Shown in pieces: positions 7,026-24,879 of a DNA stretch of 64,000 bases (position 1 is its first letter; each line of letters begins with the position of its first letter). The stretch comes from Aquiluna sp. (GTDB lineage Bacteria; Actinomycetota; Actinomycetes; Actinomycetales; Microbacteriaceae), in the NCBI GenBank assembly GCA_028822985.1, contig JAPKCK010000004.1, forward strand, positions 56,240 through 120,239, written 5' to 3'. Under the pieces are notes generated by a model. It had not been told where the DNA came from, did no database searches, and was given only the letters and a program-made list of their open reading frames with translations. Made by a program: the position numbers and the translations under genes.

Positions 7026-7352
7026 GGTTGCCTTCTAGTTGATTGGGTTTTATCTTGGCACAAGACTTCGTCAGAGTCACAACCACGCCATAGGGGGTGG
7101 AATTATTAATTACTTAATATCTTTAATAATCACTAATAACCTGCTGTGTAAAAGTGCATAAGTCTCTGTAAGCCTGCTGTTGGTTGGGAACTACATCGTT
7201 GTAAGTTGTACACAGTTCTGTGGATAAGTCTGTGCATAAGTTGTTTCGCTGTGGATGGTTTTTGTTTTCTGAACACTTTTATGTTTTTTTATAGGGAAAA
7301 AATGCTACTTCTCCACGTTTTCTTCGGAGTTGTCCACAGGCTATTTTGAAAA
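7026..7352. other. oriC: Candidate oriC: dnaA-dnaN intergenic region with AT-rich DUE-like stretch and DnaA boxes
   Basis: AT-rich tract attattaattacttaatatctttaataatcactaataac (about 7101-7140); perfect box TGTGGATAA (7219-7227); variants AGTGCATAA (7153-7161), TGTGCATAA (7231-7239), TTGTCCACA (7330-7338). Confidence 0.75.
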
Positions 7353-22777: not shown

Positions 22778-23230
22778 ATGTCGAAATTAATTTTGACCAA
22801 CGAGGTCCAAGGTCTCGGCTCTGCCGGTGACATTGTTGAGGTAAAGAACGGTTACGCACGTAACTTCTTGATACCTACAGGTCTGGCAGTTGTCTGGAGC
22901 CGCGGTGGCGAGAAGCAGGTCACCCAGATCCGCGACGCCCGCGACGCCCGCGCCATCGCATCCGAAGAAGAGGCATTGGAGATCAAGAGCAAGCTCGAGG
23001 GTGCTCTAATCACTATCACTTCAAAGGCCGGCACTAACGGTCGTTTGTTCGGTGCAATCAAGACTTCTGACCTGGCTGAAGCCATTCAGGCTCTTGGTTT
23101 CGGTGAGGTTGACAAGCGTAAGATTCAGTTCGCATCTTCAATCCGTACCGTGGGTAACTACGAGGCAAGCGTTCGTTTGAACTCTGACCTGGTAGCACGT
23201 GTAAAGATTCAGGTTGTCGCTGCCAACTAG
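22778..23230 (+). CDS. rplI: 50S ribosomal protein L9
   Basis: MSKLILTNEVQGLGSAGDIVEVKNGYARNFLIPTGLA. Confidence 0.97.
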   Translation: MSKLILTNEVQGLGSAGDIVEVKNGYARNFLIPTGLAVVWSRGGEKQVTQIRDARDARAIASEEEALEIKSKLEGALITITSKAGTNGRLFGAIKTSDLAEAIQALGFGEVDKRKIQFASSIRTVGNYEASVRLNSDLVARVKIQVVAAN

Positions 23231-23243
23231 CACAATTTTATGA

Positions 23244-23282
23244 AGGACAACCCACACTTTTTGTGTGGGTTGTCCTCTTTTA
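23244..23282 (+). terminator. Strong intrinsic terminator after rplI
   Basis: Perfect 14-bp stem AGGACAACCCACAC-ttttt-GTGTGGGTTGTCCT followed by CTTTT. Confidence 0.93.
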
Positions 23283-23337
23283 AGGGGCATGTTCTCCACA
23301 ACCCTAAGCCTGAGCTTGAGGCTTTTCAGAGATTTAT

Positions 23338-23467
23338 TTATCCACAGGCAAATCCGGGTAAAACACTGGGCAAAAGCCAGATGTCAATTTATTTATCCAC
23401 AGGTTATCCACAGGCCAACACTTAAATCATCGGCGTGTTTCCACAGGGTTATCCACAGTTATCCACA
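23338..23467 (+). promoter_or_regulatory. Cluster of five perfect DnaA boxes (TTATCCACA) upstream of dnaB
   Basis: TTATCCACA at 23338-23346, 23393-23401, 23404-23412, 23449-23457, 23459-23467, all in the same orientation. Confidence 0.85.
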
Positions 23468-23535
23468 GACTCATTTGTATGCAAAGTGTCACTGCCCCAA
23501 GCTATACATGTCTTATCTAGTTCTGGAGGAACCTT

Positions 23536-24879
23536 ATGTCGATGTTGTCAACCGTCACAGCATCTGACCCACGAGTAGCACCTCACAACCTTGAAGCAGA
23601 ACAATCCACTCTCGGTGGCATGCTGCTTAGCCAAGAAGCTGTCGCGGAGGTCGTTGAAGAAATAGCCGGTGTTGATTTTTACGCGGGTAAACACGAACTT
23701 ATCTATAACGCCATCCTTAACCTGTTCGGTCGTGGGGAGCCAACCGATGTAATCGCGGTTACCGATGAACTGAATAAGCAGGGAAACTTACTGAGAGCCG
23801 GAGGCTCCGACTATCTTCACTCCTTAGCCAGCTACGTTCCAACTGCCGCGAATGCCGGCTACTACGCGAAAATCGTTGGCGACAAGGCTATTTTGCGCAG
23901 ACTAATTGATGCCGGAACCAGAATCGCTCAATCAGGGTACGACAGCCAAGGCGAGGTAGAGGATCTTGTGAACCAGGCGCAGGCAGAGGTCTACAAAGTC
24001 TCTAGCCAGTCTTCTAAAGAAGATTACGTGGGCTTGAGCGACTCCCTAGAGGCTGCAATTCACGATATCGAGTTGGCGCAGAACCGTGGCGGGGAAATGA
24101 CCGGAACTCCAACCGGCTTCACCGATCTTGACGCCTATACCCACGGACTACACGCCGGACAGCTAATAATCGTCGCCGCACGGCCGGCGGTTGGTAAGTC
24201 GACCTTCGCGCTGGACATCGCAAGAAACGCGTCAGTTAGACACAATCAAGCAACTATCTTTTTCTCTCTGGAAATGGGTCGTTCCGAGATCGCAATGCGT
24301 ATGTTGAGCGCAGAAAGTTCGATTTATCTCCAAAGTATGCGAAAGGGAACAATCTCTGAGAGCGACTGGACGAGGCTCGCAGCCGTTCGCGGTCGAATTA
24401 ATGACGCTCCGCTATACATCGATGACAGTCCAAACATGTCCCTGGTTGAAATTAGGGCCAAGTGCAGGCGTTTGGCTCAGCAGGTCGACCTGAAGCTCGT
24501 GGTCATTGACTATATCCAGCTGATGTCCAGCGGCAAGAAGGTTGAATCTCGTCAGCAAGAGGTTTCCGAGTTCTCAAGGGCGCTGAAGCTCTTGGCTAAG
24601 GAGCTAGGCCTTCCAGTTGTCGCGCTGTCACAGCTGAACCGTCAGGCAGAGCAGTCAAAGGACAAGCGCCCTGAACTTTCTCACCTTAGAGAATCGGGAT
24701 CGCTGGAGCAGGATGCTGATGTTGTGGTGCTGTTGCATCGAGAGGGAATTTACGAGCGCGACCACCCCAGAGCAGGCGAAGCAGACCTGATCCTTGCAAA
24801 GCAGCGAAACGGACCGACCGGAACCGTCACGGTTGCTTTCCACGGACAGTACTCACGCTTTGTAAATATGCCAAGCTAA
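23536..24879 (+). CDS. dnaB: Replicative DNA helicase DnaB
   Basis: VAPHNLEAEQSTLGGMLLS, ARPAVGKSTFALDIARNAS, KLVVIDYIQLM, QRNGPTGTV. Confidence 0.97.
   Translation: MSMLSTVTASDPRVAPHNLEAEQSTLGGMLLSQEAVAEVVEEIAGVDFYAGKHELIYNAILNLFGRGEPTDVIAVTDELNKQGNLLRAGGSDYLHSLASYVPTAANAGYYAKIVGDKAILRRLIDAGTRIAQSGYDSQGEVEDLVNQAQAEVYKVSSQSSKEDYVGLSDSLEAAIHDIELAQNRGGEMTGTPTGFTDLDAYTHGLHAGQLIIVAARPAVGKSTFALDIARNASVRHNQATIFFSLEMGRSEIAMRMLSAESSIYLQSMRKGTISESDWTRLAAVRGRINDAPLYIDDSPNMSLVEIRAKCRRLAQQVDLKLVVIDYIQLMSSGKKVESRQQEVSEFSRALKLLAKELGLPVVALSQLNRQAEQSKDKRPELSHLRESGSLEQDADVVVLLHREGIYERDHPRAGEADLILAKQRNGPTGTVTVAFHGQYSRFVNMPS

What the first reader, a model, noticed from the sequence alone, without database searches (positions are those of the whole stretch)
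23338..23467. Five perfect DnaA boxes in 130 bp upstream of dnaB, about 15 kb from dnaA
TTATCCACA occurs five times, all same strand (23338, 23393, 23404, 23449, 23459), with two tight pairs; near-matches (gtttccacag at about 23437, gttctccaca at about 23291) flank them. The region is isolated from rplI by a strong terminator and leads into dnaB. By contrast the dnaA-dnaN and dnaA-rpmH regions together show only one perfect box plus variants. It could be a DnaA-regulated dnaB promoter coupling helicase supply to initiation, a datA/DARS-like DnaA titration or reactivation site, or part of the functional origin.
Basis: partly seen in the sequence, partly recalled or inferred. Interest (0 to 1): 0.7.

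Follow-up and report, generated by a model that had tools for sequence, protein, structure and literature searches.

The report
DnaA-box array at helicase gene promoter
In this small freshwater actinobacterium the stretch in front of the DNA-helicase gene dnaB is packed with binding sites for the replication initiator DnaA, next to what looks like a DNA-damage-inducible promoter; the arrangement recurs across actinobacteria and matches DnaA binding already shown at the same gene in mycobacteria.

Summary
Five perfect TTATCCACA boxes, all on the dnaB-sense strand, lie in the 305-bp rplI-dnaB gap. The genome has only 14 such boxes in 1.28 Mb. In a closed Aquiluna relative this is the densest perfect-box cluster of the chromosome. 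All 22 Aquiluna-genus loci keep the array, and the boxes are the most conserved bases of the gap. With a relaxed box, most Actinomycetes sampled and 5/5 Acidimicrobiia have two or more sense-strand boxes; 0/36 other bacteria do. The boxes stay with dnaB even when dnaB lies 39-452 kb from dnaA, and the gap lacks the AT-rich stretch seen at dnaA-dnaN. It is therefore a gene-linked regulatory array, not an origin part. Published work shows DnaA bound upstream of dnaB in Mycobacterium tuberculosis and M. smegmatis, with a DnaA mutant that binds less there and under-expresses dnaB. Best reading: DnaA regulates, probably activates, dnaB, with a PafBC damage input. New member of a known kind.

The parts
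22778..23230 (+). rplI (ribosomal protein L9), upstream neighbour
   Evidence: TIGR00158, E 2e-35
23244..23276 (+). intrinsic terminator of the rplI operon (GGACAACCCACAC-TTTTT-GTGTGGGTTGTCC, T-rich tail)
   Evidence: fold z -6.3; not listed by the pattern scan
23292..23300 (+). DnaA box 1, degenerate here (TTCTCCACA); TTATCCACA or TTTTCCACA in most relatives
23298..23327 (+). conserved non-box block (ACAACCnTnAGnttnAGnTTtAGngTTTTC), function unknown
   Evidence: mean column conservation 0.86 in 22 genus loci
23338..23346 (+). DnaA box 2, perfect
23393..23401 (+). DnaA box 3, perfect (first pair)
23404..23412 (+). DnaA box 4, perfect (first pair, 11 bp from box 3)
23430..23438 (+). TCGGCGTGT element; CGGCGTG 100% conserved in the genus, fixed 28 bp before the last box
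23437..23445 (+). DnaA box 5, degenerate (GTTTCCACA)
23449..23457 (+). DnaA box 6, perfect (second pair)
23459..23467 (+). DnaA box 7, perfect (second pair), nearest the promoter
23487..23508 (+). predicted PafBC (RecA-independent damage) promoter: -26 element TGTCACTG, 8-nt spacer, -10 TATACA
   Evidence: motif match and conservation; motif definition in PMC5656591 and PMC8151990
23525..23529 (+). ribosome-binding site GGAGG of dnaB
   Evidence: read from sequence
23536..24879 (+). dnaB, replicative DNA helicase
   Evidence: TIGR00665, E 4e-158, above cut-off
7026..7352 (-). dnaA-dnaN gap, the likely oriC: boxes in both orientations, 50-bp stretch of 20% GC at 7101-7150

Best explanation
The rplI-dnaB gap is the control region of dnaB. 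DnaA binds a head-to-tail array of five perfect and two weaker boxes that ends about 20 bp upstream of the promoter, and regulates dnaB transcription, most likely as an activator (class-I position, centre of the last box near -52 from the inferred start). The promoter itself has no -35 and carries a PafBC-type -26/-10 pair. dnaB supply is thus tied to DnaA (initiation) and to PafBC (single-stranded DNA and damage). Shown here: the sites, their conservation, their geometry, and that they follow dnaB rather than the origin. Shown by others in mycobacteria: DnaA binding upstream of dnaB and an expression effect of a DnaA mutant. Inferred: binding in this organism, the sign of regulation, and use of the PafBC promoter here.
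For: Box array in 22/22 Aquiluna-genus loci, 3-7 perfect boxes, all sense strand. Box columns conserved 0.93 versus 0.70 elsewhere in the gap. Sense-strand boxes (YBNTCCACA, two or more): 41/47 other Microbacteriaceae, 34/42 plus 12/17 other Actinomycetes, 5/5 Acidimicrobiia, 0/36 non-Actinomycetota. Box number does not fall with dnaA-dnaB distance: 2.9 (n=29, under 25 kb) versus 3.1 (n=8, 39-452 kb), p 0.56. M. tuberculosis DnaA binds Rv0057 upstream of dnaB, the homologous region is a ChIP peak in M. [quoted passage not shown] PafBC motif at least 7/8 in 60/126 upstream regions versus 0/126 on the reverse strand and 0.9% in simulated sequence. M. tuberculosis dnaB induction is partly PafBC-dependent, and the TGTCAC variant is accepted there (PMC8151990). 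This genome encodes adjacent PafB and PafC homologues.
Against: No DnaA occupancy, transcript start or reporter data exist for this genus. The sign of regulation rests on position and on one mycobacterial mutant whose effect could be indirect. The PafBC motif is not exact here (7/8), is absent or weak in about half of the regions, and was not found upstream of recA, uvrA or ruvC in G001, only at a radA-like gene and dnaB. Exact motifs are no commoner in G001 at the 8-nt spacing than at other spacings.
Confidence: 0.7

Rival explanations
1. DnaA bound to the array represses dnaB (or switches with its nucleotide state, as at E. coli nrdAB), limiting helicase supply when free DnaA is high.
For: DnaA represses and activates in E. 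coli depending on level and nucleotide (PMC8203912); the array is long and includes weaker boxes.
Against: The last box lies upstream of the predicted promoter and does not overlap the -26 or -10; the mycobacterial mutant with less binding has less dnaB RNA.
Confidence: 0.2
2. Titration site: the array mainly soaks up DnaA soon after initiation because it is duplicated early, 15 kb from oriC.
For: It holds 5 of the 14 perfect boxes of this genome, and in G001 it is the densest cluster among 26 boxes; it lies near oriC in most genomes.
Against: Boxes persist unreduced when dnaB lies 39-452 kb from dnaA; orientation is tied to dnaB; geometry to the promoter is rigid.
Confidence: 0.15
3. Part of the functional origin (a distant second half of a split oriC).
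For: Nearness to dnaA; cumulative GC skew in G001 and in the window cannot separate the dnaA and dnaB positions.
Against: No AT-rich unwinding stretch (minimum 34% GC per 50 bp versus 20% at dnaA-dnaN); the dnaA-dnaN gap carries boxes in both orientations; known split origins flank dnaA closely (PMC4285127); dnaB can move away with its boxes.
Confidence: 0.04
4. datA- or DARS-like element that changes the nucleotide state of DnaA.
For: datA and DARS are also clusters of DnaA boxes outside oriC (PMC4585315).
Against: No match to the IHF consensus in the gap; seven head-to-tail boxes at a promoter do not match a three-box core with flanking factor sites; no assay.
Confidence: 0.04

Closest known systems
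DnaA-bound region upstream of dnaB in Mycobacterium tuberculosis (Rv0057) and M. smegmatis (PMC7738170)
   Same: Same gene, upstream of dnaB, DnaA sites, near oriC; one of the five strongest DnaA regions in that genome.
   Different: Here the boxes are perfect TTATCCACA in tight head-to-tail pairs in a 305-bp gap; binding is not measured.
DnaA-dependent dnaB in Caulobacter crescentus (Hottes 2005, as cited in PMC8203912)
   Same: dnaB is in the DnaA regulon with predicted boxes upstream.
   Different: Distant lineage; different arrangement; not compared in sequence here.
PafBC / RecA-independent promoters (recA P1 type; PMC5656591, PMC8151990, PMC11804915)
   Same: TGTCRS-N10-TA layout without a -35, transcribing a replication or repair gene; PafB and PafC encoded.
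   Different: Sits directly downstream of a DnaA-box array; -10 is TATACA, lacking the final T of TAnnnT.
datA and DARS of Escherichia coli (PMC4585315)
   Same: Box clusters outside oriC.
   Different: No IHF-site match, promoter-linked geometry, moves with its gene.

Membership tests
DnaA-regulated dnaB promoter | several DnaA boxes directly upstream of dnaB | tested here: met
DnaA-regulated dnaB promoter | boxes conserved with dnaB independent of distance to oriC | tested here: met
   near 2.9, far 3.1, p 0.56
DnaA-regulated dnaB promoter | DnaA occupancy in the cell and effect on dnaB transcription | not testable with these tools
   only mycobacterial data (PMC7738170)
PafBC-dependent promoter | TGTCRGTG-N8-TAnnnT, or TGTC(GG/AG/AC)-N10-TA-N3-T | tested here: inconclusive
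   TGTCACTG-N8-TATACA: 7/8 of the -26 part and exact spacing; final T is A; enriched class-wide 60/126 versus 0/126
PafBC-dependent promoter | PafB and PafC present in the genome | tested here: met
   two adjacent WYL proteins matching PDB 6sj9 PafBC, E 2e-26 and 1e-21
PafBC-dependent promoter | damage induction lost without PafBC | not testable with these tools
   needs an experiment
oriC | AT-rich unwinding stretch beside the box cluster | tested here: not met
   minimum 34% GC per 50 bp, versus 20% at dnaA-dnaN
oriC | lies at the GC-skew minimum | tested here: inconclusive
   skew too weak to separate dnaA from dnaB
datA / DARS2 | IHF binding site among the boxes | tested here: not met
   no WATCAANNNNTTR match in 23231-23535
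DARS | stimulates ADP release from DnaA | not testable with these tools
   needs a biochemical assay

The most novel reading that the evidence does not exclude
The region upstream of dnaB is an ancient actinobacterial control hub that joins two signals on one gene: a DnaA-box array (initiation) and a PafBC promoter (single-stranded DNA and damage). In the Aquiluna lineage a third, unidentified factor binds TCGGCGTGT, a site shared with the dnaA and recA upstream regions, so dnaA, dnaB and recA form one small replication-repair regulon.
Probability: 0.25. Interest if true: 0.65.

Novelty: new member of a known kind. Interest (0 to 1): 0.45.

Why it matters
How bacteria match helicase supply to initiation is poorly known outside a few models. 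The conservation pattern suggests that DnaA control of dnaB is ancestral in Actinomycetota, so the mycobacterial observation is likely the rule for the phylum, and it points to exact sites to mutate. The adjacent PafBC-type promoter predicts that damage raises helicase supply through the same region, which one reporter construct in a laboratory mycobacterium could test.

Tried and rejected
GC skew was used to place the origin (window, G001, G010, G024) and could not separate dnaA from dnaB; in G024, where they lie 452 kb apart, the skew was too weak as well. Searching only for perfect TTATCCACA suggested that GC-rich relatives lack the array; a relaxed box showed that they keep it. Classical sigma-70 promoter: none found. 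RNA element or riboswitch: none. A first alignment with minus-strand loci in the wrong orientation was discarded and redone. WhiA (recalled core GACAC) for the CGGCGTGT element: rejected as a name, because the dnaB copies in the genus read GTGTT. IHF site: none. The DnaA-trio idea for the 23298-23327 block was not supported by eye. A phylum-wide sample outside the class was searched, but its DNA could no longer be fetched.

Full report
WHAT IS THERE. The window belongs to an Aquiluna-type freshwater actinobacterium (family Microbacteriaceae, 1.28-Mb genome in 26 contigs); the nearest named genome is Candidatus Aquiluna sp. IMCC13023, with a 100% identical DnaB. Between rplI (22778-23230) and dnaB (23536-24879) lies a 305-bp gap with five perfect TTATCCACA boxes on the + strand at the stated coordinates and two one-mismatch boxes at 23292 and 23437. 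Only 14 perfect boxes exist in the genome, so the cluster is not chance (Poisson about 3e-15). A terminator after rplI isolates the region. In the closed relative G001 the homologous gap is the densest perfect-box cluster of the chromosome: five in 300 bp, next best two.

CONSERVATION. All 22 genus loci have 3-7 perfect boxes there, all on the dnaB-sense strand. In the genus alignment box columns average 0.93 conservation against 0.70 for the rest of the gap. The perfect-box count drops in GC-rich relatives, but with a relaxed box (YBNTCCACA) most of them keep two to six sense-strand copies where simulation expects about 0.1. By group, the number of regions with two or more sense-strand boxes is: Rhodoluna and related lineages 15/15, other Microbacteriaceae 41/47, other Actinomycetes 34/42 and, in a second sample, 12/17. 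Of 41 loci from outside the class, the five that have two or more are exactly the five Acidimicrobiia; none of the 36 other bacteria do. Some zero-box loci are large-genome Streptomyces or Kitasatospora copies without rplI nearby and may be paralogues.

GENE-LINKED, NOT ORIGIN-LINKED. In most of the family dnaB lies 13-25 kb from dnaA. In eight genomes it lies 39-452 kb away, yet the mean number of sense-strand boxes is the same (3.1 versus 2.9, p 0.56). The distances were taken from the listed coordinates; a misassembly in one genome would not change the result. The dnaA-dnaN gap of the window has boxes in both orientations and a 50-bp stretch of 20% GC, whereas the dnaB gap never falls below 34%. 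GC skew could not decide. The array is therefore best read as part of the dnaB control region.

PROMOTER. Anchoring the sequences on the last box shows fixed geometry in the family: CGGCGT 28 bp before it and TTTG 15 bp after its start. In the genus a further conserved block, TGTC..TG-N8-TATACA (23487-23508), sits 20 bp downstream of the last box with no -35. This is the layout of the RecA-independent damage promoter, tTGTCRgtg-8 nt-TannnT (PMC5656591), which PafBC activates through a -26 element instead of a -35 (PMC11804915). M. tuberculosis accepts TGTCGG, TGTCAG and TGTCAC variants, and its dnaB is partly PafBC-dependent under mitomycin (PMC8151990). Across 126 dnaB upstream regions, 60 match at least 7 of 8 positions at exact spacing, against none on the reverse strand and 0.9% in simulated sequence; relatedness among genomes inflates the count but not the strand contrast. 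The genome encodes adjacent PafB and PafC homologues. In G001 an exact motif precedes what reads as radA, a repair gene (named from its sequence), but recA, ruvC and uvrA have none, so PafBC use in this genus is likely, not shown.

MECHANISM. The last box is centred near -52 from the start inferred from the -10, a place where activators contact RNA polymerase. DnaA is known to activate as well as repress, and to contact RNA polymerase in E. coli (PMC8203912). In M. tuberculosis the region upstream of dnaB is one of five strongest DnaA regions in vitro, the homologous region is a ChIP peak in M. smegmatis, and DnaA I282T binds less there and under-expresses dnaB (PMC7738170). Activation is thus the favoured sign. 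The pairs 10-11 bp apart on one strand place DnaA on one face of the helix and would favour cooperative binding (inference).

KNOWN OR NEW. DnaA binding upstream of dnaB is known in mycobacteria, and DnaA-dependent dnaB in Caulobacter. What this adds is the phylum-wide conservation, the distance test, and the pairing of the array with a PafBC-type promoter; no paper found in the held library describes the pairing, but that library lacks most subscription journals. It is filed as a new member of a known kind.

UNEXPLAINED. The element TCGGCGTGT is invariant in its core in the genus. In G001 the 9-mer occurs eight times, six outside called genes, including the dnaB, recA and dnaA upstream regions. 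The dnaA copy, within one mismatch, is present in all five Aquiluna-lineage genomes checked, 112-126 bp before dnaA, against 3.5% in simulated sequence. The factor is unknown.

Noticed in passing
window 23430-23438; G001:C1 883573 (recA), 1362643 (dnaA), 1348162 (dnaB), 834771: TCGGCGTGT(C/T) element shared by the dnaA, dnaB and recA upstream regions of Aquiluna; eight copies in the closed genome, six intergenic; at 834771 it lies next to a perfect DnaA box upstream of a possible MerR-type regulator. Factor unknown.
   Followed up: partly
window 23298-23327: Conserved block after the first box, ACAACCnTnAGnttnAGnTTtAGngTTTTC, with TTTAG-like units about 6 bp apart; not explained by boxes or promoter.
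   Followed up: partly
G024:C1 about 1023215 (L317): Densest relaxed DnaA-box cluster (5 in 500 bp) in 800 kb of a Microbacteriaceae genome, about 100 kb from dnaA and not at dnaB.
   Followed up: no
G001:C1 1250168 and 377513: Exact PafBC-type motifs upstream of a RadA-like gene and a YchF-like GTPase gene (named from sequence by eye).
   Followed up: partly
G024:C1 1121545 to 1574077: dnaA and dnaB 452 kb apart in one family member, against 13-25 kb in most; a rearrangement or misassembly.
   Followed up: partly
window 7101-7150 and 7330: Likely unwinding stretch (20% GC) and a TTGTCCACA box in the dnaA-dnaN gap, the probable oriC.
   Followed up: partly
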